NCBI RefSeq assembly: GCF_019710745.1
Contig: NZ_JAHKJW010000047.1
Span: forward strand, 1-64,000
Direction of reading: 5' to 3'
Origin: Streptomyces beigongshangae
GTDB taxonomy: Bacteria; Actinomycetota; Actinomycetes; Streptomycetales; Streptomycetaceae
Length of the DNA: 64,000 bases
Below are positions 14,891-59,342 of the stretch, in pieces. Every line of letters starts with the position of its first letter. The stretch's first letter is position 1. The notes beneath the pieces are model-generated. The model searched no databases, was not told the DNA's origin, and worked only from the letters and a program-made list of their open reading frames with translations. Position numbers and translations under genes: made by a program.

Positions 14891-17800
14891 GTGTTCGGTC
14901 GCCTTTCGCCTGCCCGGCGCCGCCGCGTGCGTCGCATGCGTACAGCTGTCGTCCCTGCCCTGGGAGCCGCTCTGCTGGTAGGTCTCTTGCCTACCCAGTC
15001 ACTGGCGCTGCCGCCCGACCCGGCCGCCGCTGAGCAGGGCCGCGAGACACTCGACCTTGAGACACTCGGCCAGGACAAGCCGATCTCTGGTGAGGCCTTT
15101 GAGCGGGACCTGGAGACCCTGAAGGTCGACGTCCCTGAGGACCTGGAACAGGCACCCGCCGGCACGGCGACGCCCCCACTGGCTGCGACCAGGACGGTCA
15201 GCTTTGGATCGACGGCAAGCGCGACGCAGGCCGCGACGGCATCTGGCATGGGCAGCGCTGCCCGGCAGGTCGACCTGACCCCAGTCGGTGACCTACCCGT
15301 CAGCCTTGGACAGGCTCCCGATCAGGCCGCTCCCACCGGCACCTGGCAGGTTTCCGTCGCTGCCCGCACTGAGCCGGTCTCGCAAGGTGTCGATGGCGCT
15401 GTCGTGACCGTTCAGGCTCCGGCGGCCGGTTCTGTGCCGGTCTCGGTTCAACTCGACTACGCCAAGTTCAAGAATCTTTACGGCGCCGACTGGGCCTCGC
15501 GCCTGCGCTTCGTCCAGTTCCCCGAGTGCTACCTCACCACGCCGGACGAGGAGGGGTGCCAGGCGTACGAAGAGCTGGAGACTGTCAACGACACGAAGTC
15601 CCAGTCGATCACCGCCACGGTCGACACGGCAGCGGACGGAACGATCACTCCGGCTGCAGCTGCGGCGACGGGTGCACCGGCGGCGTCCGCCGCTCAAGCG
15701 TCCTACCAGGTTTCAGCGAAGCCAGTGGCAGCCGCGGGTGACACTGCGGTCATCGGCGCCGTCGACTCCGGTGGCGGCGCGGGCGGTTCGTTCAAGGCCA
15801 CACCCTTGGCGTCCAACGGTAAGTGGGCGGCTGGCGGTTCAGCGGGCGCGTTCAGTTGGTCGTATCCGCTGACGGTCCCTGCGGCTCCCGCCGGACCGTC
15901 CCCCAATATCACCTTCGGCTACAACTCCCAGACGGTCGACGGACGCACGGCAGTCTCCTCTCCGCAAGCTTCCTGGATCGGCGAGGGCTGGAACTTCGAT
16001 CCCGGCCATATCGAGCGCCGCTACCGCGCTTGTCAGGACGACCGTAAGGCGCTGAATTCCGGCACGCCCAATAACACGGCCAAGGCGGACAAGACGTCCG
16101 ACCTGTGCTGGGCGTCCTACAACGCGGTGATGTCGCTGGGAGGCGCGACCACGGAACTGGTCCGCGATGCCGTTTCCGGCAGCAACCCGGAGACCGACAC
16201 CGAGATCTACAGACCCCAGCAGGACGACGGCAGCCGTATCGAGCGGCGTACCGGCGGCAGCAACGGTGACAACAACGGTGAGTACTGGATCGTCACGACC
16301 AAGGACGGCACCAAGTACTACTTCGGCCTTAACCAGGTCGGCGGCGGCCACACCGACACCAATTCCGTCTCCACGGTGCCCGTCTTCGGTAACCATCCCG
16401 GTGAGCCCTGCCACGCCAGCGTCTTCGCCGACTCGCGCTGCGGCGCGGGCAAGAAGCAGGCCTGGCGCTGGGGTCTGGACAAGGTCGTCGACGTGCACGG
16501 CAACGCGATGGTCGTCTCCTGGAAGCAGGAGAGCAACCACTACGCGGTGAAGGAGAAGTTCAAGTCTCCCGAGCAGTACGACCGCTATGCCTACCCGACG
16601 ACCATTGAGTACGGCATGCGCTCGGATCTGACCAAGCCGTCCGCGACGGTCGACTTCGGCGTCAAGCAGCGCTGCCTGAAGTCGGAGACGGCCTGCGATG
16701 CGGCGAACTTCGCCAAGACCGACGACCCGGGTGCCTACCGTCCCTGGTGGGACACGCCCGGCAACCTCAACTGCAAGTCGACGTCGAAGCTGTGCCCGGC
16801 CTTCCCGTCCTTTTGGACACAGATGCGCCTGGACACCGTGACGACGAAAGCCGCCCGCGCCGGCCAGAGCGGCCTGGGTAAGGTCGACACCTACACGCTC
16901 CACCAGTCCTTTCCCGAGGACTGGTACGACACCTCTCCCGGTCTGTGGCTGAACTCGATCACCCGCCGCGGCTTCGCACCCGGTGACACCACCGGCACCC
17001 TGCAGCACAAGGACGGGGTCAGCTTCGCCGAGTACTCGGTCGGCGCGACCTCACCCCTGCGGACCCGCCTCAAGGACCGCCAACTGCCGAACCTGGTCTC
17101 CAGCGGCCCGAGCGACCAGCGCCCCGGCTTCACCCGGCCCCGCATCGGCACCGTCGCCACCGAATACGGCGCCGACATCGAGGTCGAATACAAGGGCGGC
17201 TGCGCGAGTGAACCTGCCGAGGACAAGGGCAAGAACAACGGCACCTGCTACCCGATCCGCTGGTCTCCCGACGGCGACGAGAAGACGCCGGCGAAGGCGT
17301 GGTTCAACAAGTACGTCGTCGACTCGGTGACCGAGACCGACAAGGTCACCTCCCGCGGCAAGCCGGTCTACACGACGTACGACTACACGGACCCCGCGTG
17401 GACCAAGTCGGATGACGAGTTCACCCGCCAGGCCCTGCGCACGTACAGCGACTGGCGCGGCTACCGCAAGGTCGCAGTCACCAAGGGCAGTAAGTCCTCC
17501 TCTCAGCAAGGCGATCCGCAGTCCCAGTCCTACTCCGAAACCCGCTACTTCCTCGGCACAGGCGGTGAGGTCAAGGACTCCACGAACACCTACACGCTGC
17601 TCGCGGACGACGCTCCCCAGTACGCGGGGACAGCAGCGGAGAGCATCACCTATCTGAACTCCGACAAGCGGGTGCAGAAGCGCACTCTGAACTACCCCTG
17701 GTCCAAGCAGACCGCCTCCCGGGCAAGGGAAGCTGAGAACGGCACCGGCCTGGACCCGCTGCTCGCCCACCGCAGCGGCATCAAGCGCACGGACGAGATC

Positions 17801-20800
17801 CAGACGGTCGACAACAGCTGGCGAGCCGTCCGTACACTGACGACGTTCGAAGACACCTACGGACTGCCCATCCAGAGCGAAACAGCGGTGGTCAAACCGA
17901 GCGGCAGCAGCGAAATCCTGTCCGACCAGAGCTGCACCAAGACCTCGTACGTGCACAACACGTCGGCGTGGCTGATCGGACTGCCGAAGGAACAGCGCAG
18001 CACGGGGACGCCGTGTACGGGCTACGACGAGGCAAATCCGGCCACCAAACTCGTATCCGCGGTGCGCAACAGTTACGACGGCCTGGCCTACGGCGCGACC
18101 CCGACGAAAGGCCTCCTCACCGGTAGCGCAGGCGCTGACGGCGCCGGGACCTCGTACACGGCCGAGACGAAGAGCACCTACGATCCACTGGGCCGTATCC
18201 GCACCGTCACCAAGCCTGGCGCGGGCATGACAGAGACGCAGTACACCCCTGCCGACTCGGGCGGGCCGGTGACCTCGGTGAAGGTCATCAACGCCAAGAG
18301 CCATGCCGTCACCACGACCTTCGACCCCGGACGTGGCCTGGCGCTGACGGTCACCGACGCGAATGGACGCGTCACCCGCAACGAGTACGACGCCCTCGGG
18401 CGCATGGTGAAGGGCTGGTCACCCTCCCGCTCCTCGGACAGCAAGTCCCCGGATGTCGAGATCAACTACCAGGCAGCCATCGCCACCCCCGAGCAGACGC
18501 GCCCCGCCGCCGTCACGACCAGCACCCTCAAGGACGACGGCTCCTACAGCCGTCAGGTGACGGTCTACGACGGTCTCATGCGACAGGTCCAGTCCCAATC
18601 CGAGGCTCATGGGCCCGGCCGGATCATCACCGACATCACCTACAACGACCACGGGCTGCCCGACGAACAGACAGGCGCCTACCTCGCCAAGGGCGAACCT
18701 GCCACCGAACTGTTCGCTCCCCGCTCGAAGTCGCTGATTCCCAGCTGGGTCAAACTGCGCTACGACGGCCTGGAGCGCCAGGTCCGCCAGTCGACATATC
18801 ACGACGGCGACTACGTGTACGCGACGTACATCACGCACAGCGACACCAGCACATACGTGAACCCGGCCGGCTCAACCATTCCCCGGACCCGGACCTACAC
18901 CGACGCGCTCGGCCGCGTCACCTCCATCCGGCACTACAGCAACGACGACTCAGGCTCGGACAGCGGGCGCGTGACCGCCTACGAGTACGACGCCCGCGGC
19001 TACCGCACCAAGGTCACCGACCCGGCGAACAACGCCTGGACGTACACCTACGACGCCCGCGGCCGTATGACGTCCACCACCGACCCCGACGTGGGTAAAA
19101 CGGATACCGGCTACGACGACGCCGACCGGCCCAACAAGGTCACGGACGCCAAGTCCCGCACGACCTACACCGAATACGACGAACTCAGCAGGATCAAGTA
19201 CATCCGCGCAGGCTCCGCGACCGCCACGCCCGCCAAGTCGTTCACCTACGACACACTGCCCGGTGCGCTCGGTCAGCCCGTCGCCGCCACCCGGCACACC
19301 ACCAACGGCGACTACACCAACCGCGTCACCAGCTATGACACCGAATACCGGCCCACCGGCAGCGAGACGGTCATCCCGTCCAGCACGATGACCACCGGCC
19401 TGGCTGGCACCTACGCCTACGCCTACACCTACACCCCCACCGGCAAACCGCTGTCGACCACGCTGCCCCCCGTCGGCGGACTGGCGAAGGAGAAGGTCGT
19501 CACCCGCTACAACAGCGACGGCCTCGCCGAATCGACCTCCGGCCAGGACTGGTACGCCTCCGATGTGACCTACTCGCCCTACGGCGAAGCCCTGCGCACG
19601 GTCTCCGGCTCCCAGCCCAACCGGGTCTGGACGACGAACTTCGTCGACCCCCACACCGGCCGCCTCCAGCGCACGGTCGCAGATCGCGAAACCGCCAGCC
19701 CACACCGCATCACCGACAGCTACTACTCCTACGACGTCTCCGGCACCATCACCTCCAACGCCCGCAAACTGACCGAGGCCTCGGGCACGACGTGGGACAA
19801 CCAGTGCTACACGTACGACGTCATGGGCGAACTCGTCAACGCCTGGACGTCCAGTGTTGCGCCGGGCGGAAATGGCACAGGCTGCACGTCATCTGTCGGA
19901 ACGACCTGGGGATACCGCACCGACTTCGCCGCCTCCTCCGGACCAGTGACGGACGCACCGGATGCGGCGAGCGACGTGTCGAGCCCGGACGCATCATTGA
20001 CGGCGACCCTGACCGCAGCCGCCCCGGGCACGGGCACCGTGGCCAGCGGCGCCACGGCCTACCGCCAGTCGTTCACCTTCGACTGGCTCGGCAACCGGGC
20101 CGCCATGACCGAACACAACCCGGCCGACGCCACGAAGAATGTCAGCTACACCTACGGCTACGGCACCCCGCAGCCGCACACCATGAAGTGGATCAGCTCC
20201 ACCCCCTCCGGCAAGGACAGCAGCTACACCTACGACGCCGCGGGAAACACCGAAGGCCGAGACCTCCCCGACGCCACCCAGAACCTGACCTGGACATCTG
20301 AGAACAAACTCGACACCATCACCGACGACGGCAAGAAGACGACGTACGTCTACGACGCTGATGGCAGTCGCCTCTTGGAGAACTCACCCTCGGGCTCCAC
20401 CCTCTACCTGGGCGAGACCGAAGTGACCACCAACGCTTCCGGAACCATCACCCGCGCCTCCCGCACCTACACCCAATCCGGCGCCCCGGCCGTCACCCGC
20501 ACCACGACCAACAGCGCCACAACAGGCCACACCCTCACCGCGCTGCTCACCGACCACCTCGGCACGGCCAACACCACGGTCGAACTCACAGCCAGCCAGC
20601 CTGTCGTCCGTCGCGCTTTCAAGCCCTACGGCGAAATCCGCGGCACCAAGCCGACGGCGTGGCCCAACAAGCGCAGCTACCTCGGCGTCGGCATCGACGA
20701 CGAAGCCACCGGGCTGACCCACATCGGAGCCCGCGAGTACGACCAGAGCTCAGGCCGCTTCCTCTCAGCCGACCCGATCATCGATGTCGCCGACCCGCTG

Positions 20801-22135
20801 CAGATGAACGGGTACGCATACGCCAACAACAGCCCGGTGAGCAAGAGCGACCCGACCGGTCTGAAGGTGGCCTGCGGCGCCGGATTCGACACACCATGCG
20901 CAAAGGATGACCACAACGGCGACGGAGTCCTCGATAAGACTTCGTACGGCTCCAACACCGCAACCAGCTCGGGAAACGATTCGAGCACTGGAACGACATG
21001 GGTGAACAGCCAGACACCCAAGACGAACAACATCGACGACCTGCTGCGCCACTTCACCATGAGCAGCCCGAACGGTGACTCACCAGACACGGATTATTGG
21101 ATCACCCCCGTTCACGAAAACAGCGGTGACAGCAACGCATGCTTTGGCAGGGAGGCATGCCGTCAGGCCCTGAAATATCTGCTCAAACACAATGACGCAG
21201 CGAAAGCCAAACGCATCGCCGCCAATTACTGCGTCGAAAACTTCAACAAGTGTGTGGCGGACGCCAAAGGGTTCGAACGTGCCAAGCTGATCGAGGACTT
21301 CGTCGGAACTCTTGTCGCCGGTGGGAAAGCAGGAAGCAAGGCGGCGAAGTCAGCAAGAGCGATCGGCTGCAAATGCTTCCTCGCTGGTACCGACGTTCTA
21401 ATGGCCGACGATACTACCTCGAACATCGAGGACATCGAACTTGGTGACGAGGTCCAGGCGACCGACCCTGAAACCGGTGAGTCTGGCCCCAGGAAAGTGA
21501 CCCGCCTCATCGTCACCAAGAGCGACAAGCAGTTCAATGAACTGTCCATCGCCACCGGCAACGGCATCGACAAAATCACGGCCACGCGTGAGCACCCTTT
21601 TTGGTCATCCTCCGAGCACAACTGGATCGAGGCCGGCGCCCTCACCGCAGGCATGACCCTGCTCACCGATGAAGGTGACACCGTCATCGTCACCGGCAAC
21701 CGATCCTTCACCAGGCACGCCCGCACATACAACCTCACGGTCGCAGACCTGCACACGTACTATGTGCTGGCGGGAGCCACTCCGGTCCTCGTGCACAACA
21801 GCAACTGTCTTGGCGATCCGAATGCCAGAGGTGGGATCTATACACTCCGTGACGTGGACGGAAATGTTGTCAGAACTGGGCGAACGAACAATTTGCAGCG
21901 GCGAGAACGTGAGCACGCCCGAGGGGAAGACACCGCCGACTACAGCTTCCAAGTTGAATACCGAACCGACGTCTACCGAGAGCGGCGCGGTTTGGAGCAA
22001 ATCGTATGGATTCAGAACGGGCGTCCTACGTTGCCCAGTGTGAGAAGGACATCCGGAGTTAGTGTAAAAAATCGGAACTACAACAATTATATGGATGCCG
22101 CTGGCAAATTCTTTGCCAAATGGTATCCAGGGTGA
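14891..22135 (+). CDS. RHS polymorphic toxin with Hint domain and GIY-YIG nuclease tip
   Basis: A 2414-residue secreted RHS protein. It has a signal peptide with an Arg-rich n-region at 1-40, an SpvB-like N-terminal region, and many YD repeats (YDALGRM, YEYDARGYRTKVTDP, YDDADRP) from about 1080 to 1900. The RHS core motif GRFLSADPI lies at about 1953. A Hint autoprotease starts at CKCFLAGTDVLM with probable nucleophile Cys2162, holds TREHPFW and ends VHN at 2301-2303. The released tip, 2304-2414, has the GIY-YIG plan: GGIYTL (2314-2319), RTG (2328-2330), Arg2337, His2342 and Glu2369, plus KNRNYNN near the end. It is therefore a probable DNA-cleaving toxin. An Imm26-like gene follows 11 bp later. 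The start is GTG with GGGGGA upstream. Confidence 0.88.
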   Translation: MFGRLSPARRRRVRRMRTAVVPALGAALLVGLLPTQSLALPPDPAAAEQGRETLDLETLGQDKPISGEAFERDLETLKVDVPEDLEQAPAGTATPPLAATRTVSFGSTASATQAATASGMGSAARQVDLTPVGDLPVSLGQAPDQAAPTGTWQVSVAARTEPVSQGVDGAVVTVQAPAAGSVPVSVQLDYAKFKNLYGADWASRLRFVQFPECYLTTPDEEGCQAYEELETVNDTKSQSITATVDTAADGTITPAAAAATGAPAASAAQASYQVSAKPVAAAGDTAVIGAVDSGGGAGGSFKATPLASNGKWAAGGSAGAFSWSYPLTVPAAPAGPSPNITFGYNSQTVDGRTAVSSPQASWIGEGWNFDPGHIERRYRACQDDRKALNSGTPNNTAKADKTSDLCWASYNAVMSLGGATTELVRDAVSGSNPETDTEIYRPQQDDGSRIERRTGGSNGDNNGEYWIVTTKDGTKYYFGLNQVGGGHTDTNSVSTVPVFGNHPGEPCHASVFADSRCGAGKKQAWRWGLDKVVDVHGNAMVVSWKQESNHYAVKEKFKSPEQYDRYAYPTTIEYGMRSDLTKPSATVDFGVKQRCLKSETACDAANFAKTDDPGAYRPWWDTPGNLNCKSTSKLCPAFPSFWTQMRLDTVTTKAARAGQSGLGKVDTYTLHQSFPEDWYDTSPGLWLNSITRRGFAPGDTTGTLQHKDGVSFAEYSVGATSPLRTRLKDRQLPNLVSSGPSDQRPGFTRPRIGTVATEYGADIEVEYKGGCASEPAEDKGKNNGTCYPIRWSPDGDEKTPAKAWFNKYVVDSVTETDKVTSRGKPVYTTYDYTDPAWTKSDDEFTRQALRTYSDWRGYRKVAVTKGSKSSSQQGDPQSQSYSETRYFLGTGGEVKDSTNTYTLLADDAPQYAGTAAESITYLNSDKRVQKRTLNYPWSKQTASRAREAENGTGLDPLLAHRSGIKRTDEIQTVDNSWRAVRTLTTFEDTYGLPIQSETAVVKPSGSSEILSDQSCTKTSYVHNTSAWLIGLPKEQRSTGTPCTGYDEANPATKLVSAVRNSYDGLAYGATPTKGLLTGSAGADGAGTSYTAETKSTYDPLGRIRTVTKPGAGMTETQYTPADSGGPVTSVKVINAKSHAVTTTFDPGRGLALTVTDANGRVTRNEYDALGRMVKGWSPSRSSDSKSPDVEINYQAAIATPEQTRPAAVTTSTLKDDGSYSRQVTVYDGLMRQVQSQSEAHGPGRIITDITYNDHGLPDEQTGAYLAKGEPATELFAPRSKSLIPSWVKLRYDGLERQVRQSTYHDGDYVYATYITHSDTSTYVNPAGSTIPRTRTYTDALGRVTSIRHYSNDDSGSDSGRVTAYEYDARGYRTKVTDPANNAWTYTYDARGRMTSTTDPDVGKTDTGYDDADRPNKVTDAKSRTTYTEYDELSRIKYIRAGSATATPAKSFTYDTLPGALGQPVAATRHTTNGDYTNRVTSYDTEYRPTGSETVIPSSTMTTGLAGTYAYAYTYTPTGKPLSTTLPPVGGLAKEKVVTRYNSDGLAESTSGQDWYASDVTYSPYGEALRTVSGSQPNRVWTTNFVDPHTGRLQRTVADRETASPHRITDSYYSYDVSGTITSNARKLTEASGTTWDNQCYTYDVMGELVNAWTSSVAPGGNGTGCTSSVGTTWGYRTDFAASSGPVTDAPDAASDVSSPDASLTATLTAAAPGTGTVASGATAYRQSFTFDWLGNRAAMTEHNPADATKNVSYTYGYGTPQPHTMKWISSTPSGKDSSYTYDAAGNTEGRDLPDATQNLTWTSENKLDTITDDGKKTTYVYDADGSRLLENSPSGSTLYLGETEVTTNASGTITRASRTYTQSGAPAVTRTTTNSATTGHTLTALLTDHLGTANTTVELTASQPVVRRAFKPYGEIRGTKPTAWPNKRSYLGVGIDDEATGLTHIGAREYDQSSGRFLSADPIIDVADPLQMNGYAYANNSPVSKSDPTGLKVACGAGFDTPCAKDDHNGDGVLDKTSYGSNTATSSGNDSSTGTTWVNSQTPKTNNIDDLLRHFTMSSPNGDSPDTDYWITPVHENSGDSNACFGREACRQALKYLLKHNDAAKAKRIAANYCVENFNKCVADAKGFERAKLIEDFVGTLVAGGKAGSKAAKSARAIGCKCFLAGTDVLMADDTTSNIEDIELGDEVQATDPETGESGPRKVTRLIVTKSDKQFNELSIATGNGIDKITATREHPFWSSSEHNWIEAGALTAGMTLLTDEGDTVIVTGNRSFTRHARTYNLTVADLHTYYVLAGATPVLVHNSNCLGDPNARGGIYTLRDVDGNVVRTGRTNNLQRREREHARGEDTADYSFQVEYRTDVYRERRGLEQIVWIQNGRPTLPSVRRTSGVSVKNRNYNNYMDAAGKFFAKWYPG

Positions 22136-22146
22136 GGTGGTTAAGT

Positions 22147-22593
22147 ATGACCCGAAAGTTGCCATACTCCCCGGGTAATATCTTCGCAGTGCCTCTTCGT
22201 GATCACGGATACGCGTTGGGTGTGGCGGCCAGGGCGGACGGTAAGGGTATCGTTCTCGGTTATTTCTTTGGCCCGCGCTTGGAAACACCTGAATTCCCGC
22301 CGCAAGGTTTTCTTAAGCCGAATAGCGCGATCAAAGTTTGTAGGTTCGGTGACCTCGGGCTTATTCGTGGGAAGTGGCCGATCATAGGGAGGATTGAATC
22401 GTGGAACCCTGCCCTATGGGGCGTTCCTGACTTCTGCAGAAATGAGGAAATCCGTGTCGTTTACGACGACGCTTCGCTCACCATGTCCCGCGAAGAGCGG
22501 CTGGAACCGGAGGAGTGCCGACTTCTTCCGCAGGACGGCCTTGAAGGGGCGGGCTTCGTAGAGATTAAGCTCACTCGCCTCCTTGGGGCGTGA
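22147..22593 (+). CDS. Imm26-like immunity protein
   Basis: A 148-residue cytoplasmic protein beginning 11 bp after the RHS-toxin stop. GGTGAGG at 22131-22137 overlaps that stop and serves as its ribosome-binding site, so the two are translationally linked. The N-terminal YSPGNIFAVPLRDHGYALGV followed by GIVLGYFFGPR matches the Imm26 pattern (a G-[DN]-x-F-x-[VI]-P-L entry and a GYFFGP strand). The expected role is binding and blocking the GIY-YIG nuclease tip in the producer. ATG 22147 is preferred to an upstream in-frame start at 22120 that lies inside the toxin gene. The pairing is inferred from position and family. Confidence 0.75.
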   Translation: MTRKLPYSPGNIFAVPLRDHGYALGVAARADGKGIVLGYFFGPRLETPEFPPQGFLKPNSAIKVCRFGDLGLIRGKWPIIGRIESWNPALWGVPDFCRNEEIRVVYDDASLTMSREERLEPEECRLLPQDGLEGAGFVEIKLTRLLGA

Positions 22594-22762
22594 CGCCGCC
22601 GTCAGGACTGCGTGATCGGAGAAATTTTCGGACTCCGCCCTTCGTAACCACCCCGAACGGGACTGTAACAACGGCTAACACAAAGAGGTGGATCGGTCCT
22701 GGCTGCCGTGACTGGCGCGGGTGTTGAGCGTTCGGTCTGGTGTGGGGACGTAGTCATGGATC

Positions 22763-23403
22763 GTGTCGGATGAGTTGCGGGACCGCCTGGAGCCGCTGCT
22801 GCCGCAGCGTGAGCGCAGGTTCCGGTATCCCGGCCGCAAGGCATTGCCGGACCGGGAAGTGCTGTGAGGGATCCTGTCTGTGCTGCACACCAGGATCCAG
22901 TGGGAGTACCTGCCGCAGGAGTTGGGGTTCGGCTCGGGCAGGACGTGCTGGCGTCGTCTGCAAGAATAGAACGAGGCCGGTGTGTGGCAGCGGCTGCACG
23001 AGGTCCTGCTGGCGGAGTTGAACGCGGCATCGCGGTTGGACTGGTCCCGGTGTGTGGTCGATTCCTCCCACGTCAGGGCGTTAAAAGGGGGATCCATGCG
23101 GGCCCCTCGCCGGTCGACCGGGGCCGGGCCGGCTCGAAGCACCATCTGATCACCGACGGGCAGGGCACCCCGCTCGCAGTCCTGCTGGCCGGCGGCAACC
23201 GCAACGACGTCACGCAGCTGCTTACGCTGCTCGACGCGATCCCACCGGTCCGTGGCCGGGTCGGCCCCGCAGCAAGCCGGACTCCCTGTTCGCCGACCGC
23301 GGCTACGACCACGACATCTACCGCCACCAGGTCCGCGCCCGCGGCATCGTCCCCGCGATCGCTCGCCGCGGCACCCTGCACGGCACCGGACTGGGCACCC
23401 ACC
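22763..23403 (+). pseudogene. IS5-family transposase fragment (plus strand)
   Basis: Broken IS5-type transposase. It starts at GTG 22763 with SDELRDRLEPLLPQRERRF and continues through YPGRKALPDREVL. It is interrupted by TGA at 22865-22867 and by a TAG after WRRLQE. It goes on through VVDSSHVRALKGG and SKHHLITDGQGTPLAV, then shifts frame near 23265 into SLFADRGYDHDIYRHQVRARG. It stops being IS5-like after HGTGLGT at about 23400, where an oppositely oriented IS5 transposase begins. At least two nonsense codons and one frameshift make it inactive. DNA from 22594 to 22762 shows no gene and probably includes the element's end. Confidence 0.8.
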
Positions 23404-23729
23404 GGCGGGGCAGTGGCTGGAACCCGCGGACATCCTCGTTACGGCGGACGATGTCGAGGACGAGCCCGAGGTGCTGGCTGGTCCAGTCGGTGAGGTGGCC
23501 AGTGTAGCCGCCGTCGGCCCAGACCCGCGCCAGCCGCCGCAAGCGGTCAGCCGCCGCAAGCGGCCGGCCGCCGCTGGCGAAGGGACCGGGCGCCGTCCCG
23601 GTCGGTCACGGACGCCGGTGTGACCAGCACGGCCAGGAGAAGTCCGAGCGTATCCACCACTAGGTGTCGCTTGCGGCCGTTGATCTAATGGGCGAGAGCT
23701 GAGCTCGTTGAAACACCTCCTCGATGCCG

Positions 23730-52022: not shown

Positions 52023-52388
52023 TCACGCTCCAAGATAAGCGTGTCGTTCACTTCCTGGAATCTCATGCAGTTTCCCGTCGCGGATCTGCCACTCAGTCAA
52101 TCCGTCGACTTCGTGTGTCACCAGAAACAGGCCCTCCACTCGAGATTCCTCCTCATCTCCTGTCGGCAACGCGGCCATCTCGGTGAGCTGGTCACGCAAC
52201 CAAGGCACGTTCGTCACTTGTAGATCACCACCGTAGAAAGCGTATGACGTCCAGTTGAACGGTTGAGATGGAAAACCCCATCCGCCGGAATATGCGTTGC
52301 CAGAGTGCTTGGCAATGATGCTCTTCAGGAGCTCCAACTGCCCCGAGTCGCATTCGAGCCACCCTCGAATTGACACGTACACAGCCAT
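52023..52388 (-). CDS. Possible additional immunity protein
   Basis: A 121-residue cytoplasmic protein: MAVYVSIRGWLECDSGQLEL, GNAYSGGWGFPSQPFNWTSY, AFYGGDLQ and LFLVTHEVDGLTEWQIRDGK. The pattern is that of widespread small actinobacterial proteins found near polymorphic-toxin genes, but no function is established. It lies downstream of the module B toxin and immunity genes, on the same strand, separated from them by a strong terminator (52440-52474), so it is its own unit. AAAGGATAAG precedes ATG 52388. It may be an orphan immunity gene. Confidence 0.55.
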   Translation of the reverse strand: MAVYVSIRGWLECDSGQLELLKSIIAKHSGNAYSGGWGFPSQPFNWTSYAFYGGDLQVTNVPWLRDQLTEMAALPTGDEEESRVEGLFLVTHEVDGLTEWQIRDGKLHEIPGSERHAYLGA

Positions 52389-52500: not shown

Positions 52501-52887
52501 TTACCGAGTCATGAGTCGGTGCGCGAAGATCGCCGAATTTACCACGGATTCCCACAAAGGTGAACTCATGTATTCTGCGTCTTCTTTTTCTTCGCCCTCG
52601 TGTGCCAGGAGAGTGTTAATGGAGGTAGCCAATGCCTCCATCACCGTCACCTCATCATGGCATTTTAGTATCGTGCCAACCTGAGAGGCTGGGTCTTCCA
52701 GCACCAGGGTGTCATCGAAGAGGATGTGTAGATTCATTGCGAAGTCGTCGTAATAACCCTCTTTCGGGAAAATTCGATCAACCCAGACTCGTTTCTGATA
52801 ATCTCTGTCCGCGAGGGCGCCAATCGCAGAAATGACACTTCTACGCATTTCGGGAAGCGTCACGTCGCTCAATTTGGGGAGTTCCAT
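52501..52887 (-). CDS. SCO4402-type immunity protein for the module B toxin
   Basis: A 128-residue acidic protein: MELPKLSDVTLPEMRRSVIS, ALADRDYQKRVWVDRIFPKE, GYYDDFAMNLHILFDDTLVL, then VTVMEALATSINTLLAHEGE. It resembles the SCO4402-type Streptomyces family by recall. Its start overlaps the 3' end of the RHS gene (stop 52869-52871). ATG 52887 fits the family start, while ATG 52896 and TTG 52905 are alternatives. The overlap means toxin and immunity are translationally coupled. The expected role is binding the RHS C-terminal toxin. Confidence 0.72.
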   Translation of the reverse strand: MELPKLSDVTLPEMRRSVISAIGALADRDYQKRVWVDRIFPKEGYYDDFAMNLHILFDDTLVLEDPASQVGTILKCHDEVTVMEALATSINTLLAHEGEEKEDAEYMSSPLWESVVNSAIFAHRLMTR

Positions 52888-55800
52888 GACTTCCATTTCA
52901 TCCAATCGCGGAGCGGGATGTGGGCGTCGTAGGCGTTCGATTTAATATCCCCCGCCAAAGGATTTCCGTCCCGTCCGATTATTTTTCCGCCGGAGTTGAT
53001 GACGACGTGATCAACCTGCTGATACTCCTGAGAGTTGTTCAGATTTCCCTTGTCGATTCGAACTCCATTTCCCTTTCCGTCGTTCCAGCGCCATCCTATT
53101 CCTTTCTTCGTGGCCTTCCCGTCCCCGAAGGATCCAGGAAACTTTTCGCTGGCCGACTTTGGTATCCAAGATGGTGCCCCGCTGCCAGCGGAACTACCAC
53201 TAGCTTGTCCCTCAACTTCCCGCAGAGCCTTGCTCAGCCCTTTATTGATCCGTCCGATGCCGTCTGCGGCGCCGTAGGCGCCCATGCCCGCCAGTGCTAC
53301 GCCGCCTGCTGCGGCCGGCGCGCCAAGGACACAGCCGACGCCCGTGAGACATACCAGTGATCCGCCGATGGCAATTTCGCCGCCGAGGTTCATCAGGGCG
53401 ATGCTGCCGGCCGTTTCGGCGGCGCCCCACCAGGTCTCTGGTTGCGAGAAGATCGCGGAACCGTAGTTGACGACTGTGTCCACGGCGTTCGGGATCCAGT
53501 CCCATCCGAAGCCGCCGCTGTCCTTCTTGGTGGTACCGGTGCTGTCTGTGTGGGAGGTACCGCAGTTGCTGTTGCAGGGATGGTACGGAAGGGGCTTGGA
53601 GTGGTCGACGGCCTCGTTGGGGCGTCCGTTTCCGGGTGTTCCGTCGGGGCGGTCCGGGCAGGCTTCTCCTGATCCGCCCGCTCCGCCGCACGCGAGACCC
53701 ATGCCGCTTGGGTCGGACTCGGTCACGGGGCTTTGAGCGCCGTAACTGTAGCCGTTCAGGGTCTGGTGCCTGTCGAGTTCCAGGAGCGGGTCGACGCTGA
53801 TGAACTGTCCCACGGCGGGGTCGTATTCACGGGCCCCGATATGGGTCAGTCCTGTCGATTCGTCCGCGGGCTTGCCTAGGAACGCCTTGTCGTCCGGCCA
53901 GGTGGTCGCCTTCGTGCCGCGCGTGCCGCCGAAGGGCGTGCTGTAGCGCTTGGTGATGGCGTACGTGGCCGCGTCCAGGGCGATGCTCGATGTGCCGTGG
54001 TGGTCGGCGGCCAGGAAGCTGAGCTTCGTGCCCGAGACTCCGGAGGTCGCTGTTCGGACTGCGATGGTCTGGCCGTTGGCGCTGTAGTACCTCGTGCCCG
54101 ACAGGGTCTTCGTGGTCCCCTTGGTGGTGAGCCGGACCTCTGTGCCGCCCAGGTAGAGGACCGTGTCGCCGTCCCCCTTGGCCCTGCGGATCAGGAGTTC
54201 GCCGCTCGCGTCGTAGAGGTAGTTTGTCTCCTTCGCGCTCTCGGTGAGCTTGCTCAGGTCTCCCTCAGGGTTCCAGGCCAGTGTCTGCTGGCTCGCTGCG
54301 CCGGGGCGGGAGGTCGTGTTGCCGGTGCTGTCGTAGGCGTACGTGGCGGCCTGGGCGCCCGTCGTTTTGTCCAGGGTGTGGGGCTTGGTGTCGGTGGTGC
54401 CGTCGTAGGTGTAGCTGGTGGTCTTGTCGCCCGAGGACGCGTGCTGCGTCTCCGTCTTGCGCTGACCGCCGGCGGTGTATGTGTACGACGTCCAGTACGG
54501 GGCCGCTCCATCGATGTTGGAGGTGCTGCGACCTGACGTCGCGCAGTCCGCCGTCTTCGGGGTCCATGCCTCGGTCATGCGGCGGTAGCCGTCGTAGGCG
54601 AAGCACTGGTTGTCCGTCTTCGCGGTGCCGCCTTGGGTGGTGGCGTCGAAGATCGACGTGACGTTGCCCGCGTCGTCCTGGGCGAACTTCAGTTCCTGCG
54701 GCATGTAGCCGTGCACGTCGTCGGTGACGTAGGAGCGGGTCAGGCGGCGTGTACCGGTCTCGTAGTCCCAGTTGAGGTAGGCCTTCTTCGCCGAGCTGGT
54801 GCCGTCCGTTGCGAGGGTGAGCTGGCGCAGGTCGCCCTGCGGGGAGAACGCCGCGCCCTGCAGGTAGCCGCTCGTGCCCTTGGAGGTGAGCTGGCCGCCC
54901 GTCGCGTTGTAGGTGTAGGAGACCGTTTCAGCGGCCAGGCCGCCCACCGCGGGTGCGCTGGCCTGGCTGACCGTGCCGTCCAGGTTGTACCCGGTGCTAA
55001 AGGACAAGGTCTTCGGCACGGAGCCGCCGGCGACCAGCGGTTCGGTCTCAGGCAGGAGCAGCTGGCTGGCGCTCACCCGGTACAGCGGGTCGTACGCCGT
55101 AACCTTCTGGGTATACGCCTTTCCGGCCATGCCGCCGTCGTAACGGACCGCGGTGTCCTGCTGTCCCTTCCTGAGGGTGTCGAACGTCCAGGCCGCGAGC
55201 TTGTTGGCGTCCGTCTTCGACGCCTGCCACATGCCTGTCCTGCGGCCCAGGTCGTCGTACTCGTAGAGCAGCTTCTTGGCCGCGTCGTCGTTCGGGGTGG
55301 TGCTGACGACCTGGTCCAGGTCGTTGTACTCCGTGACGCTCCCGCCCTTGTCCGGGTCCGTCACGGTGACCTGACGGCCGAACAAATCGTACGAGTAGGA
55401 CCACTTGGTCTTGTCGGGACCGGTGATCGTCTCCTGCTGTCCGGCAGGGGTGTAGGTGTAGCCGGTCGTCGTGTAGTCGGTGCCGGTCGGGGTCGGGCCG
55501 GCGTACTCGCGGCGCTCTGTTGTCTGTCCCAGGGCGTTGGTGACCGTCGTGGTGGCCTGGCCGCCGGCCGGTGCTGTGGTGGAGACCGAGTCACCCGTGT
55601 AGGCGGTGTTGATCGTCCAGCGGGTGACGCCGTGAACCTTCGTCACCGTCTTGGACGCGCGGTCGGCACCGTCGTACGTCGTGTCCGTCTGGAGTGGGGC
55701 CTGACCGCCGTCCGTCTGCACCGGGGTGCCGGAGGGAGTTGACGTGTTGTCCCAGATGTCCGACTGCTGACTTACCGCCAGGCCTCGGTCGTCGTACAGC

Positions 55801-58800
55801 GTCAGCGACACGAGCCGGCCACCGGCCGGACTGGGCGTCTGCGTCTGGCGTGAGCGCAGCAGGGAGTCGTAGAACTCGTAGCCGGTGTTGTAGCCGGAGC
55901 CGTCACCCTTGAGCGTCCCGGTGGAGACCCAGGACATGGCCGTGTTGGTGACCTTGTAGTCGTAGACGTAGTTCGGCGTCTTGCTCAGGGCCTTGGAGCG
56001 GTTGGGCAGCCAGACCTTGATCACCCTGCCGAGGCTGTCGTACTCGGACTCGGTGACGTTGTTGTTGGCGTCGGTGGTCTTCAGGACCGCGCCGGTGGCG
56101 AAGTCCGATGCCGTAACCGTCTTGTGCGTCTTGATGTTGGTGATCGTCGTCGAGGTCAGCGGACCGGTGGCCACCGGATCGTAGACGGTGTTGGCCACCA
56201 CCGCGCCGTTGGCGTCCTTGACGACGAGGACGCGTCCGAGCGTGTCGTAGGTCGTCGTGGCGGTCTTCTGCCAGAGGGCTGCGTCATCGCTGCCGTAGGA
56301 TTTGGCCCGACCGGTCCACGTCACGTCACCCTTGGTCGGCTTCTGCGAGGCCGACCACGTGGTGGCCGTGGTGTCGTCGTAGACGGTGGCGGTGTCGGAG
56401 ACGACGTCACCGGACCGCTTGGAGTCCGCAGGAAGGTCCAGCGCGGAGTCCGCCGTCGCGCAGGTCTTGGCCACGGTGCGCGTGCGGGACACCAGGGAGT
56501 TGATGCCGCTTTCGGCATTGCGGGCGTACCAGGTGCGGGTGCACTTCTCGTCGCCTGAGACGGCGTCATCGCCCTGGTCTTCGACCTTTTCGGCCATGCC
56601 GTAGTCGTCGTAGGTGGTCTTCACCGTGCGCACCCGGTCGTACGGCGTCGCCTTGCTGGTGATGTTGGTACGGGTGTGCGTGGCGTCGGTGCGCACGAAG
56701 TACGCCTCGGTGTCCGCGTACGACTTGTGCTGGGTCGCCGTCCGCTTCGACCAGGGGTCGTTGACGGTGCCGGTGACCTCGGTGTCCCCGTTGTAGCTGG
56801 CCGTCTCGCGGGTGAAGCCCGTGTACTGGTCAAAGTCGGTGACCTCATTGGCCTTGATCCCGGAGACCTTCACGCTCTTGCGCGCGTCCGGGTCCGGGGT
56901 CTTGCCGTCGGAACCAAGGACACGGTCACCGTTCATACCGCGCAGATAGACGGTGACGGTCTTGCTCTGGGTGCGGCCGGAGACACCGGTGAGATGGGTG
57001 ACCTTGCCGTAACCGCGCCAGATGGACCAGGTGCGCTCCTTGGCGGGCGTCATCGGGTCCTCGTTGTAGCGCCAGGCACCGCCGTCCGAGGAGTACTGGT
57101 AGGTGTGCTGCACCGCCTCCGAACCGCCGAAGGGGTCCGTCGTCGACACCGACGTGACCGGGTACTTCTGGAACCAGTCAAGGATCGGGGTCTTTTGACC
57201 GTTGGGCGACCAGTACACGGGATAACAGCGCTTGGTGTTCTGATCGAGCTTGGGCTTCGTGCCGCCGGCCGTGCACTCGGAGGGCGCGTAATTGACGATC
57301 GTCTGCGCGCCCGTCTCGGAGACGACCGTCTTGATGCGGGGTTTGTCGAGCGGCAGGATGTCATCGGCGGTGCCGTCCACCCGGTTGGACATCATCACAT
57401 GGTCGAACTTGACCGGGTCCAGCGCCAGATCGGTGCCGCGCTTACCCGTGTGCTTGATCTCGTCCAGCCACAGCGACTGGTCGGTTGAATCACCCGTGTC
57501 GCCCGGATCCAGGTAGAGGTGCTTGAGCGCCCAGGCATCCACACTGTCGTAGTCGGGCGTCGTGGCCTTCGCGTTCCACGCGTAGGTAGTGACGGTGGTC
57601 AGCCGCTTGCGTGTGAAGAACGTCGGCCCGACGTTGCCGGTGCACTTGTCGCCGTCCTTGCAGAGCGCGTCGAACGGCACGTCCGGCCAGTTGTCCCGAG
57701 TGTCCTTAGTCAGCGAGTCACAACCGGTGCCGGAGGCCAGGCAGCGCTCGGAATAGTTGAAGACCACCTTGTTAGAGACCACCGGCGAGCCGGAGAACAG
57801 TTCACCGGCCCGCTGCCCGTAGCGGATCTCTTCCAGGTAGCCGCCGCGCACGTAGTCGGTGCCCGTGTTGTCGTCGCCGAGCTTGTCGTAGTTGTTGTGC
57901 TCCGCGGTGTACCAGTACGACGTGGCGTTGCCGTGGGTGTCCTCGACGTAGTCGAGGTTCCAGCGCCAGGCCTGCTTCTTGGCGCGGCCGGAGAAGGAGG
58001 TGCCGTCGGAGTAGCCGGGCTCGTCCTCGTCGTCGCCGAAGACCGGCACGGTCCATACCGACTGGGTGCGGTCGTCCGTACCCGCGCCGTCGAGCTTGTT
58101 CAGCCCGAAGACATACTTGGTGCCGTCACCGGTGACGACGGTCCAGTGCTCTCCGTCGTCGTCGCCGTTTTCCGCGCCCGTGGAGCGGGTGACGGTGGAG
58201 GCGTCGTCGTTCTTCAGCCGCCATGTGCCGCTGGTGTCGTCCTTGACCAGCTCGCTCGCCTTGCCGTTGAGTACGAGTGAGGCGTTGTCGTACTTCCAGC
58301 ACAGGTCGTACTTCTCGTCCTGGCCGTCGTCGTCGCAGGAACCGTACTTGCGCTCGATGAACGACGAGGTCAGGTCGAAGCCCTCGCCGACCTGGCTGCC
58401 CTGGTTGTTCGAGTTCGCTGTGCGCCCGTCCACGGCACCCGAGTCGTAGGAAAGTTCCAGAGATGGCTTTGACCCGGCCGCTGCGGGTGGCACTCGCAGC
58501 GGGTACGACCAGGTGAACGAGCCGGACGAGCCGCCCGCTTCCCAGGTCGAGGAGGCGGACAGCGGCGTGGCCTTGTAGTCGCCGGAGCCTGATTTCGCGG
58601 CCGCCGCCAGTGCCAGCGTCATCGGCGCACCGCTGGAGGACAGATCCAGCGCTACCGACAGCTGATTTTTCTGCCGGTTGTTGGTGGAGTCGAGGCTGTC
58701 GGCTGTACGGCACTTCGCCGCGGCCGGATCGGCTGGCGCGCAGTGGGGCAGCCGGCTCAGTGCAAGCCGTCCCGCCCAGTCACCACCGTACGCAGAGGCG

Positions 58801-59342
58801 AAGGCCGAATAATCGATGCCCAGCTGAGTCCTGCCGCCGCCCTTAGCGCCGGTGACCTTAAGGACCACGCCCTTCACGCCGAGCTTCGCTGCCGTCTTCT
58901 GGTCCATTACCTGGACGGTGACGGTCTCGGCGGCTTTGCCGTTGAGCGGCGCGGCAACCGTGAGCGGCAGCGAGCCGGGTGCCGCCTTGGCGGCACCCTT
59001 GCCCGGGATGGTCAGCGAAGCCTTCCCCGGTTTTGGCCAGCTGACCTTCTGCTGCTGATCTTTACGTGCGCGTGCGGCCGCGGTGCGGTCGGCCTCCGCC
59101 GCCTGTGCCATCACGGCGGCGGCCTTCTTGTTTGTTTTCGCCGTGAACGGTGAGACCTTGGTGGCTTTCGGCGCCTTGAAGTCCGGTCTGCCCAGCGGAT
59201 CGGTGTCCGCGGCGAATGCGACGGGTGTCAGCAGGCCCGGCAGCATGGCTATGCCCACGCCGAGGGCGACGTGCCGCATCCAGCGGCCGTTGCCGGTTTC
59301 CGGTCTGCTTCTGGGCAGCCGGTACTTCCCCAAGGGGTTCAT
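52869..59342 (-). CDS. RHS polymorphic toxin, type-24-like tip (module B)
   Basis: A 2157-residue secreted RHS protein. The signal peptide is at about 20-44 (WMRHVALGVGIAMLPGLLTP, then VAFAAD). An SpvB-like N-terminal region follows, then many YD repeats (YDSLGRVI, YDLFGRQVTVTDP, YDDLGRR) at about 1050-1830. The core motif VGQFISVDPLLELD lies at about 1842. A hydrophobic Gly/Ala-rich pre-toxin segment is at about 1975-2030. The tip at about 2048-2157 has GIGWRWNDGKGNGVRIDKG, QEYQQVDHVVINSGGKIIGR and HIPLRDWMKWKSW, matching the polymorphic toxin type 24 pattern by recall. There is no Hint domain, unlike module A. An overlapping immunity gene follows. Confidence 0.85.
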   Translation of the reverse strand: MNPLGKYRLPRSRPETGNGRWMRHVALGVGIAMLPGLLTPVAFAADTDPLGRPDFKAPKATKVSPFTAKTNKKAAAVMAQAAEADRTAAARARKDQQQKVSWPKPGKASLTIPGKGAAKAAPGSLPLTVAAPLNGKAAETVTVQVMDQKTAAKLGVKGVVLKVTGAKGGGRTQLGIDYSAFASAYGGDWAGRLALSRLPHCAPADPAAAKCRTADSLDSTNNRQKNQLSVALDLSSSGAPMTLALAAAAKSGSGDYKATPLSASSTWEAGGSSGSFTWSYPLRVPPAAAGSKPSLELSYDSGAVDGRTANSNNQGSQVGEGFDLTSSFIERKYGSCDDDGQDEKYDLCWKYDNASLVLNGKASELVKDDTSGTWRLKNDDASTVTRSTGAENGDDDGEHWTVVTGDGTKYVFGLNKLDGAGTDDRTQSVWTVPVFGDDEDEPGYSDGTSFSGRAKKQAWRWNLDYVEDTHGNATSYWYTAEHNNYDKLGDDNTGTDYVRGGYLEEIRYGQRAGELFSGSPVVSNKVVFNYSERCLASGTGCDSLTKDTRDNWPDVPFDALCKDGDKCTGNVGPTFFTRKRLTTVTTYAWNAKATTPDYDSVDAWALKHLYLDPGDTGDSTDQSLWLDEIKHTGKRGTDLALDPVKFDHVMMSNRVDGTADDILPLDKPRIKTVVSETGAQTIVNYAPSECTAGGTKPKLDQNTKRCYPVYWSPNGQKTPILDWFQKYPVTSVSTTDPFGGSEAVQHTYQYSSDGGAWRYNEDPMTPAKERTWSIWRGYGKVTHLTGVSGRTQSKTVTVYLRGMNGDRVLGSDGKTPDPDARKSVKVSGIKANEVTDFDQYTGFTRETASYNGDTEVTGTVNDPWSKRTATQHKSYADTEAYFVRTDATHTRTNITSKATPYDRVRTVKTTYDDYGMAEKVEDQGDDAVSGDEKCTRTWYARNAESGINSLVSRTRTVAKTCATADSALDLPADSKRSGDVVSDTATVYDDTTATTWSASQKPTKGDVTWTGRAKSYGSDDAALWQKTATTTYDTLGRVLVVKDANGAVVANTVYDPVATGPLTSTTITNIKTHKTVTASDFATGAVLKTTDANNNVTESEYDSLGRVIKVWLPNRSKALSKTPNYVYDYKVTNTAMSWVSTGTLKGDGSGYNTGYEFYDSLLRSRQTQTPSPAGGRLVSLTLYDDRGLAVSQQSDIWDNTSTPSGTPVQTDGGQAPLQTDTTYDGADRASKTVTKVHGVTRWTINTAYTGDSVSTTAPAGGQATTTVTNALGQTTERREYAGPTPTGTDYTTTGYTYTPAGQQETITGPDKTKWSYSYDLFGRQVTVTDPDKGGSVTEYNDLDQVVSTTPNDDAAKKLLYEYDDLGRRTGMWQASKTDANKLAAWTFDTLRKGQQDTAVRYDGGMAGKAYTQKVTAYDPLYRVSASQLLLPETEPLVAGGSVPKTLSFSTGYNLDGTVSQASAPAVGGLAAETVSYTYNATGGQLTSKGTSGYLQGAAFSPQGDLRQLTLATDGTSSAKKAYLNWDYETGTRRLTRSYVTDDVHGYMPQELKFAQDDAGNVTSIFDATTQGGTAKTDNQCFAYDGYRRMTEAWTPKTADCATSGRSTSNIDGAAPYWTSYTYTAGGQRKTETQHASSGDKTTSYTYDGTTDTKPHTLDKTTGAQAATYAYDSTGNTTSRPGAASQQTLAWNPEGDLSKLTESAKETNYLYDASGELLIRRAKGDGDTVLYLGGTEVRLTTKGTTKTLSGTRYYSANGQTIAVRTATSGVSGTKLSFLAADHHGTSSIALDAATYAITKRYSTPFGGTRGTKATTWPDDKAFLGKPADESTGLTHIGAREYDPAVGQFISVDPLLELDRHQTLNGYSYGAQSPVTESDPSGMGLACGGAGGSGEACPDRPDGTPGNGRPNEAVDHSKPLPYHPCNSNCGTSHTDSTGTTKKDSGGFGWDWIPNAVDTVVNYGSAIFSQPETWWGAAETAGSIALMNLGGEIAIGGSLVCLTGVGCVLGAPAAAGGVALAGMGAYGAADGIGRINKGLSKALREVEGQASGSSAGSGAPSWIPKSASEKFPGSFGDGKATKKGIGWRWNDGKGNGVRIDKGNLNNSQEYQQVDHVVINSGGKIIGRDGNPLAGDIKSNAYDAHIPLRDWMKWKSWNSPN

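What the first reader, a model, noticed from the sequence alone, without database searches (positions are those of the whole stretch)
21367..22593. Hint-released GIY-YIG nuclease toxin with an Imm26-like partner
The last 111 residues of the RHS protein carry GGIYTL, RTG, Arg2337, His2342 and Glu2369 in GIY-YIG order, directly behind a Hint domain ending VHN. The next gene starts 11 bp later and looks like Imm26. GIY-YIG (URI-fold) tips and Imm26 are known polymorphic-toxin families. This particular pairing on a Hint-bearing Streptomyces RHS protein deserves testing.
Basis: partly seen in the sequence, partly recalled or inferred. Interest (0 to 1): 0.75.

Follow-up and report, generated by a model that had tools for sequence, protein, structure and literature searches.

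The report
Streptomyces GIY-YIG toxin with Imm26 immunity
A very large Streptomyces protein, probably secreted, ends in a probable DNA-cutting toxin that a self-cleaving domain may release, and the next gene makes the likely protective partner; this is a new example of a known kind of bacterial weapon, with good evidence that toxin and protector belong and travel together.

Summary
Residues 2304-2414 of the RHS protein match Pfam GIY-YIG exactly at its curated cut-off, behind a PT-HINT domain with its expected cleavage residues. The next gene, 11 nt on, is Imm26 (47.9 bits, cut-off 23.3). Two corrections: the catalytic arginine is Arg2338, not 2337, and the YIG tyrosine is an arginine (RTG), as in all five members of this subtype that hold the position, window included. 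New evidence for the pairing: of 23 Imm26 places in samples of the genus and class, 14 follow a GIY-YIG or GIY-YIG-like tip, 2 follow a stub of this very tip, 7 are orphans; I recognised no other toxin type. Tip and Imm26 divergence correlate (r 0.87-0.95). Against Streptomyces canus, tip and Imm26 are younger than Hint and RHS, with the break near the Hint end, so they moved as one cassette. A Methylosinus pair was split by an IS6 inversion. Tox-URI1 with Imm26, RHS and HINT was tabulated in 2012: a new member of a known kind. Two tips of the same subtype have other neighbours. The tip model is weak and the Imm26 model failed; toxicity, cleavage and substrate are untested.

The parts
14891..22135 (+). 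RHS/YD-repeat protein, 2414 aa, with a signal-peptide-like N-terminus (by eye), RHS core, Hint and tip
   Evidence: ORF; RHS_repeat, SpvB; YD_repeat_2x and Rhs_assc_core
20621..20863 (+). RHS-associated core, residues 1911-1991
   Evidence: TIGR03696 59 bits, cut-off 32.5; 66 bits
21374..21799 (+). Hint domain, Cys2162 to Asn2303 (CFLAGT, TREHPFW, YNLTV, VHN)
   Evidence: PT-HINT 74.4 bits; intein_Cterm 18.7 bits, cut-off 15.6; motif places
21800..22135 (+). GIY-YIG (Tox-URI1-like) toxin tip, residues 2304-2414: Tyr2317, Arg2328-Thr-Gly2330, Arg2338, His2342, Glu2369
   Evidence: Pfam GIY-YIG at cut-off; profile to I-TevI; invariant columns in 10 tips
22134..22140 (+). Shine-Dalgarno-like GAGGTGG overlapping the toxin stop codon
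   Evidence: sequence, by eye
22147..22593 (+). Imm26 family immunity protein, 148 aa
   Evidence: PF15428 47.9 bits, cut-off 23.3
21745..22593 (+). block shared recently with Streptomyces canus: end of Hint, tip and Imm26; left edge uncertain between 21745 and 21844
   Evidence: third-codon-position change point; dS by module; identity falls again after the Imm26 stop

Best explanation
This is a polymorphic toxin of the secreted RHS type. Shown: an RHS protein with a Hint domain carries a C-terminal GIY-YIG tip, followed by an Imm26 gene; tip and Imm26 share a recent history that differs from the backbone. Inferred: the protein is exported through a signal peptide and the RHS part forms a shell around the tip; the Hint domain cuts behind Asn2303 and frees the 111-residue tip; after contact the tip enters a neighbouring bacterium and cuts its DNA with a metal-dependent GIY-YIG site. 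Imm26, probably translated in step with the toxin, binds the tip in the producer and its kin. Tip and Imm26 form one cassette that is swapped between RHS backbones near the conserved end of the Hint domain.
For: Profile matches for Hint, GIY-YIG and Imm26; the tip profile finds I-TevI and, weakly, UvrC. Tyr14, Gly27, Arg35, His39 and Glu66 of the tip are the only invariant columns among 10 tips. 23 Imm26 places in two samples (11 in 392 genomes of the genus; 12 further in 394 of the class): 14 with a GIY-YIG or GIY-YIG-like tip in front, 2 with a 3' stub of this tip, 7 without a toxin directly upstream. Mantel correlation of tip and Imm26 divergence 0.95 (15 pairs) and 0.87 (11 dereplicated), p 5e-5 and 1e-4. 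Window against S. canus: dS 0.27 tip (95% bootstrap 0.15-0.43), 0.33 Imm26 (0.23-0.47), 0.99 Hint (0.67-1.51), 0.70 RHS (0.62-0.76); dN/dS of the tip 0.135. Change point reached by 0 of 2000 permutations. Methylosinus pair split by two inverted IS6 copies with an exact 8-nt inverted target repeat. Literature: an Imm26 protein (TipC) binds and neutralises a Mg-dependent DNase (PMC10833071, passages); an Rhs GIY-YIG effector (TkeA) is a DNase neutralised by its downstream protein (PMC12302616, passages).
Against: The GIY-YIG match only equals the Pfam cut-off and falls below it in the whole protein. The YIG tyrosine is Arg. The tip model is weak and the Imm26 model failed. Two tips of the same subtype are followed by other genes: DUF4259 in L066, a protein without a Pfam match in L042. 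Papers link Imm26 also with other toxins: Tox-HNH is named in PMC10833071 and a DUF6769 protein in PMC11669294. Of the 14 tips, four (L016, L017, L019, L025) rest on motif order: the two that were scanned gave no GIY-YIG hit and profile comparison gave probability 5% (E 0.0073). L033, L036 and L035 had no GIY-YIG hit either; L035 lies 444 nt from its Imm26, and the Imm26 of L036 is under the Imm26 cut-off (21.6 of 23.3 bits). In the Mantel set L033 and L036 have similar tips (distance 0.58) but very different Imm26 (0.88).
Confidence: 0.83

Rival explanations
1. The tip has the GIY-YIG fold, but the Tyr-to-Arg change at the YIG position makes it a nuclease of another substrate (RNA, tRNA or structured DNA) with altered chemistry.
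For: Arg is present in all five members of this subtype that hold the position: window, S. canus, Methylosinus, L042, G559. The 2012 table gives KxG at this place for Tox-URI2.
Against: The GIY tyrosine, Arg and His match I-TevI; the Imm26-linked toxin TepC and the Rhs-GIY-YIG toxin TkeA cut DNA.
Confidence: 0.2
2. The tip is a decayed or inactive nuclease kept as a passenger, and only Imm26 is under selection.
For: GIY-YIG score only at cut-off; orphan Imm26 genes are common: 7 of 23 without toxin and 2 with only a stub.
Against: dN/dS of the tip against S. canus is 0.135, lower than that of Hint (0.26), RHS (0.26) and Imm26 (0.22); catalytic columns are invariant.
Confidence: 0.06
3. The neighbouring Imm26 protein is not the partner of this tip; adjacency is chance or Imm26 protects broadly.
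For: Tips of this subtype also occur with DUF4259 or another gene; papers link Imm26 with other toxins too.
Against: 14 of 23 Imm26 places have a GIY-YIG or GIY-YIG-like tip, and tip and Imm26 distances correlate; tip and Imm26 have similar dS and moved together.
Confidence: 0.05
4. The Hint domain does not release the tip; it is a structural or inactive remnant and the tip acts while attached or is freed by the RHS shell or another protease.
For: Some tips in the sample follow RHS sequence with no Hint motif in the stretch that I printed (L016, L018, L020, by eye). No cleavage was tested.
Against: Cys2162, TREH, and HN-Ser at the end are all present; PT-HINT 74.4 bits.
Confidence: 0.2

Closest known systems
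Tox-URI1 polymorphic toxins with Imm26 (Zhang et al. 2012, PMC3482391)
   Same: URI/GIY-YIG tip on RHS proteins with HINT; Imm26 listed as one partner; Y, R and RxxE of the listed motif present (RGLE, 2366-2369); Actinobacteria listed for both families
   Different: YxG is RTG here; the listed N has no invariant counterpart; the Imm26 row marks Tox-URI1 partners only for Bacteroidetes and gamma-proteobacteria
TepC/TipC of Yersinia pseudotuberculosis (PMC10833071)
   Same: Imm26 immunity protein encoded directly behind a nuclease toxin
   Different: T6SS effector; the paper found no predictable domain in TepC; not compared here by sequence
TkeA/TkiA of Yersinia pseudotuberculosis (PMC12302616)
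   Same: Rhs protein with GIY-YIG DNase and a downstream immunity protein
   Different: T6SS delivery; the family of TkiA was not named in the passages that I saw; not compared here by sequence
WapA/WapI of Bacillus subtilis (recalled, no call)
   Same: secreted Gram-positive YD-repeat protein with exchangeable C-terminal nuclease and downstream immunity gene
   Different: WapA tips that I recall are tRNases and no Hint domain is used

Membership tests
GIY-YIG / Tox-URI1 nuclease | profile match above the curated cut-off | tested here: inconclusive
   22.6 bits against a cut-off of 22.6 for the tip alone; 17.2 bits in the whole protein
GIY-YIG / Tox-URI1 nuclease | GIY tyrosine, catalytic Arg, His and Glu | tested here: met
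   Tyr2317, Arg2338, His2342, Glu2369 invariant in 10 tips; Tyr, Arg and His align with I-TevI Tyr6, Arg27, His31
GIY-YIG / Tox-URI1 nuclease | YIG tyrosine (YxG) | tested here: not met
   RTG here; R[TS]G in 5 of 5 subtype members that hold the place. YxG in the 7 other tips; Tox-URI2 has KxG. I therefore call it a GIY-YIG, Tox-URI1-like tip and not a strict Tox-URI1
GIY-YIG / Tox-URI1 nuclease | GIY-YIG fold | tested here: inconclusive
   beta-beta-alpha-beta-alpha-alpha order; best PDB hit UvrC GIY-YIG domain, E 0.017, prob 0.95, TM 0.32, in a model of pLDDT 52
Imm26 (PF15428) | profile match above the curated cut-off | tested here: met
   47.9 bits, cut-off 23.3, positions 2-102 of 107
Imm26 (PF15428) | neutralises an adjacent toxin | not testable with these tools
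   adjacency and shared history only
PT-HINT | profile match and Cys/His/Asn residues of self-cleavage | tested here: met
   74.4 bits, cut-off 27.7; Cys2162, TREH, His2302-Asn2303
PT-HINT | cleavage behind Asn2303 | not testable with these tools
   none
RHS polymorphic toxin | YD repeats, RHS core, exchangeable C-terminal tip, immunity gene behind it | tested here: met
   tip and backbone have different ages

The most novel reading that the evidence does not exclude
A distinct subclass of GIY-YIG toxins, marked by ARGG-x-Y and R[TS]G in place of YxG, uses an arginine at the second-tyrosine place for altered chemistry or substrate. It travels with its immunity gene as a cartridge that plugs in near the conserved end of the Hint domain, across Streptomyces, other actinobacteria and an alphaproteobacterium, and changes its immunity partner (Imm26, DUF4259, an unnamed protein) while the tip stays recognisable.
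Probability: 0.22. Interest if true: 0.55.

Novelty: new member of a known kind. Interest (0 to 1): 0.38.

Why it matters
It gives a well-bounded, testable toxin and immunity pair from Streptomyces. It shows at the DNA level that the unit of exchange here is tip plus immunity, with the break at or near the Hint cleavage site. It also points to a GIY-YIG subclass with Arg instead of the second Tyr, which would test how strict that active site is.

Tried and rejected
PADLOC gave no hit for tip or immunity protein. The PDB by single sequence gave nothing for the tip and only chance-level hits for Imm26; an Imm26 profile gave only weak PrgH hits (E 0.088 and worse), which I do not use. The tip profile also gave a chance-level ribosomal hit (8cgn, E 0.041), ranked above UvrC. 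AlphaFold for Imm26 had two sequences and failed. Imm26 in viral contigs: no relative. The tip in 293 genomes of the order: only the window. L005 (36% identity in one of 392 genomes) was not pursued. Profile comparison of the YVTYTKT tips with the other tips was inconclusive (probability 5%, E 0.0073). Mistakes mended: one search read minus-strand loci in the wrong orientation (redone); misread L027, whose contig ends early (mended: it carries the end of a window-type tip); the RHS figure came from a wrongly bounded stretch of L038 and was redone (0.697 became 0.696; the other modules are unchanged). L039 and L018 are the same stretch; only L018 is counted. The Mantel set left out L027/L045 (tip incomplete), L042 and L066 (no Imm26), the two stub loci and the orphans; it kept L040 with its tip cut at the IS6. 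Its test does not correct for shared ancestry of the genomes.
Full report
What is there. A single ORF, 14891-22135, codes for an RHS/YD-repeat protein of 2414 aa. Its N-terminus looks like a signal peptide (by eye; no predictor was run). Its C-terminal part has three modules: an RHS core (residues 1911-1991), a Hint domain (Cys2162 to Asn2303; PT-HINT 74.4 bits against a cut-off of 27.7) and a tip (2304-2414). The Hint motifs CFLAGT, REHPFW, YNLTV and VHNS begin at residues 2162, 2233, 2280 and 2301. The gene behind starts 11 nt after the tip stop, with GAGGTGG overlapping that stop (by eye).

The tip. Scanned alone it reaches 22.6 bits for Pfam GIY-YIG, exactly the cut-off; within the whole protein it stays at 17.2 bits. 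A profile of ten tips finds the catalytic domain of I-TevI (1mk0, E 1.9e-4; 1ln0, E 0.016) and weakly UvrC (1yd6, E 0.13), with one chance-level ribosomal hit between them. The alignment places Tyr2317 on I-TevI Tyr6, Arg2328 on Tyr17, Gly2330 on Gly19, Arg2338 on Arg27 and His2342 on His31 (numbers counted from the alignment). Five columns are invariant in all ten tips: Tyr2317, Gly2330, Arg2338, His2342, Glu2369. The model of the tip (three sequences, mean pLDDT 52, 21 residues at 70-90) has beta-beta-alpha-beta-alpha-alpha order, and the eight best PDB matches are UvrC GIY-YIG domains (best E 0.017, prob 0.95, TM 0.32). No match had E below 0.001 there or among viral models, so this is support and not proof.

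The Arg subtype. The window has RTG where YIG is expected. S. canus (RTG), Methylosinus (RSG), a contig of the viral collection (L042, RTG) and an actinobacterium (G559, RTG) agree: five of five that hold the place. A sixth member (L045, contig edge) lacks this part. G559 was found with a profile that already contained RTG, so it is not fully independent. The other seven tips have YxG. The 2012 table gives YxG for Tox-URI1 and KxG for Tox-URI2, so a basic residue here has a parallel.

The immunity gene and the pairing. The 148-aa protein is Imm26 (47.9 bits). I asked how Imm26 is placed elsewhere. Of 392 genomes of the genus 11 have it; of 394 genomes of the class 12 have it, at 13 places, one of them (L036) under the family cut-off; the window is in both samples. 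That makes 23 distinct places. In front of them I found: tips with a GIY-YIG hit, at or over the cut-off in window, L018, L020, L028 and under it in L026, L029; tips without a hit that align with these (L033, L036); tips with the order Y, YxG, R, H, RxxEQ only (L016, L017, L019, L025; no GIY-YIG hit for the two that were scanned, L016 and L025); the end of a window-type tip at a contig edge (L027/L045); a weak candidate 444 nt away behind a Hint domain (L035). These are 14. Two places carry only a 3' stub of this very tip (L022 and L024). Seven show no toxin directly upstream (L021, L023, L030, L031, L032, L034, L037); L037 has an RHS fragment there. In none did I recognise another toxin type, though I did not scan every upstream gene against Pfam. 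Outside these samples, a Paenarthrobacter plasmid has an Imm26 gene beside an IS110 transposase with no toxin in the listed genes (that gene table is incomplete).

Tip and Imm26 distances correlate: r 0.95 for 15 pairs (13 of the 14 above plus S. canus and Methylosinus), 0.87 for 11 dereplicated pairs, 0.88 for 10 without L035; p 5e-5, 1e-4 and 2e-4. One pair goes against it: L033 and L036 have similar tips (distance 0.58) and very different Imm26 (0.88). The test does not correct for relatedness of the genomes.

The pairing is not exclusive. Searching the subtype profile in the class sample gave three tips in 394 genomes (12 candidates scored per genome, so misses are possible): the window and G473 with Imm26, and G559 with a DUF4259 gene (76.7 bits) behind a tip that follows a Hint end. 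L042 is followed by a 105-aa ORF without a Pfam match.

Cassette history. Streptomyces canus DSM 40017 (L038, the better of two relatives that genome contigs gave) has the same arrangement: tip 91.9% and Imm26 85.8% identical in protein, RHS 74.3% and Hint 66.9%. dS is 0.27 for the tip (95% bootstrap 0.15-0.43) and 0.33 for Imm26 (0.23-0.47) but 0.70 for RHS (0.62-0.76) and 0.99 for Hint (0.67-1.51). Within Hint the first 124 residues have dS 1.18 and the last 18 only 0.36. Third-codon identity jumps from 0.48 to 0.81 at 21748, reached by 0 of 2000 permutations (Hint to Imm26); the range within 2 lnL is 21745-21844 (Hint and tip only) and contains the Hint/tip border at 21799/21800. Identity falls again behind the Imm26 stop. 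So the tip with its immunity gene was exchanged as one piece, and the break lies at or near the conserved Hint end. The tip is under purifying selection (dN/dS 0.135).

An independent case. On a plasmid of Methylosinus trichosporium OB3b (an alphaproteobacterium; both plasmid records that match the tip are of this strain) a tip 62% identical over the part that remains (66% in the tblastn stretch) is interrupted by an IS6 element. About 9 kb away the second, inverted IS6 copy (804 nt, 100% complementary) is followed by a short stretch resembling the tip's end (by eye) and directly by an Imm26 gene (40.5% identical). The 8 nt beside the two copies on the toxin side are exact reverse complements. 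This is the mark of an intramolecular insertion with inversion, so toxin and Imm26 were most likely contiguous there too.

Orphans. In G196 the Imm26 copy is full length and keeps dN/dS 0.12-0.15 against its relatives although only the toxin's tail is left; in G109 the Imm26 frame ends early. Orphan immunity genes fit the polymorphic-toxin picture.

Literature. Zhang et al. 2012 (PMC3482391, passages) list Tox-URI1 with Imm14, Imm26, Imm44 and Imm51, with HINT and RHS, in Actinobacteria among others; their Imm26 row marks Tox-URI1 partners for Bacteroidetes and gamma-proteobacteria. TipC (Imm26) binds and neutralises the Mg-dependent DNase TepC; that paper names Tox-URI1 or Tox-HNH as usual partners of Imm26 (PMC10833071, passages). 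A Salmonella Imm26 gene lies with a DUF6769 gene (PMC11669294, passages). TkeA is an Rhs GIY-YIG DNase neutralised by TkiA (PMC12302616, passages). Salmonella GIY-YIG Rhs candidates are listed with a CdiI-type partner (PMC10469887, passages). Passages of PMC13340143 and PMC7073777 were also seen. Searches of the held library for Imm26 with GIY-YIG (2 papers), Imm26 (10), GIY-YIG with immunity protein, RHS and toxin (8, of which 7 listed) and three of Streptomyces, polymorphic toxin, Rhs, GIY-YIG (28, of which 15 listed) listed no paper whose title or start of abstract describes this Streptomyces pair; I saw passages of seven papers only, so this is not proof that it is unpublished.

Verdict. 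The finding is real and rightly interpreted. It is a new member of a known kind. Additions made here are the matching subtypes, the cassette border, the split and orphan copies, and the Arg subtype. Release by Hint, toxicity, substrate and immunity remain inferences.

Noticed in passing
window 52869-59342 (-): A second RHS protein (2157 aa from ATG) with another C-terminal tip (its last 103 residues gave no Pfam hit); the gene behind it (52504-52899) matches DUF7945 (73 bits) and another small gene follows (52026-52388, no hit)..
   Followed up: partly
window 22740-23620 (+): Transposase-like remnant with a DDE_Tnp_1 match (31 bits, cut-off 23, in 22864-23490) just behind the Imm26 gene; it looks broken into short frames (by eye)..
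   Followed up: partly
L016, L017, L019, L025: A tip family YVTYTKTN..VY[ST]GR[TS], GIY-YIG-like by motif order only; L016 and L025 were scanned and gave no hit better than E 0.18. The four were found through Imm26, so their link with it is by construction..
   Followed up: partly
L066:1801-2229 (+): DUF4259 gene directly behind a GIY-YIG tip of the same Arg subtype, so DUF4259 may be an immunity family for these tips..
   Followed up: partly
L042:1402-3576 (+): A contig of the viral collection codes for a 725-aa frame with an RTG-type GIY-YIG domain followed by a 105-aa frame without a Pfam match..
   Followed up: no
G000 (own genome): Eight RHS-core matches but one PT-HINT and one Imm26 match, both at this locus..
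   Followed up: no
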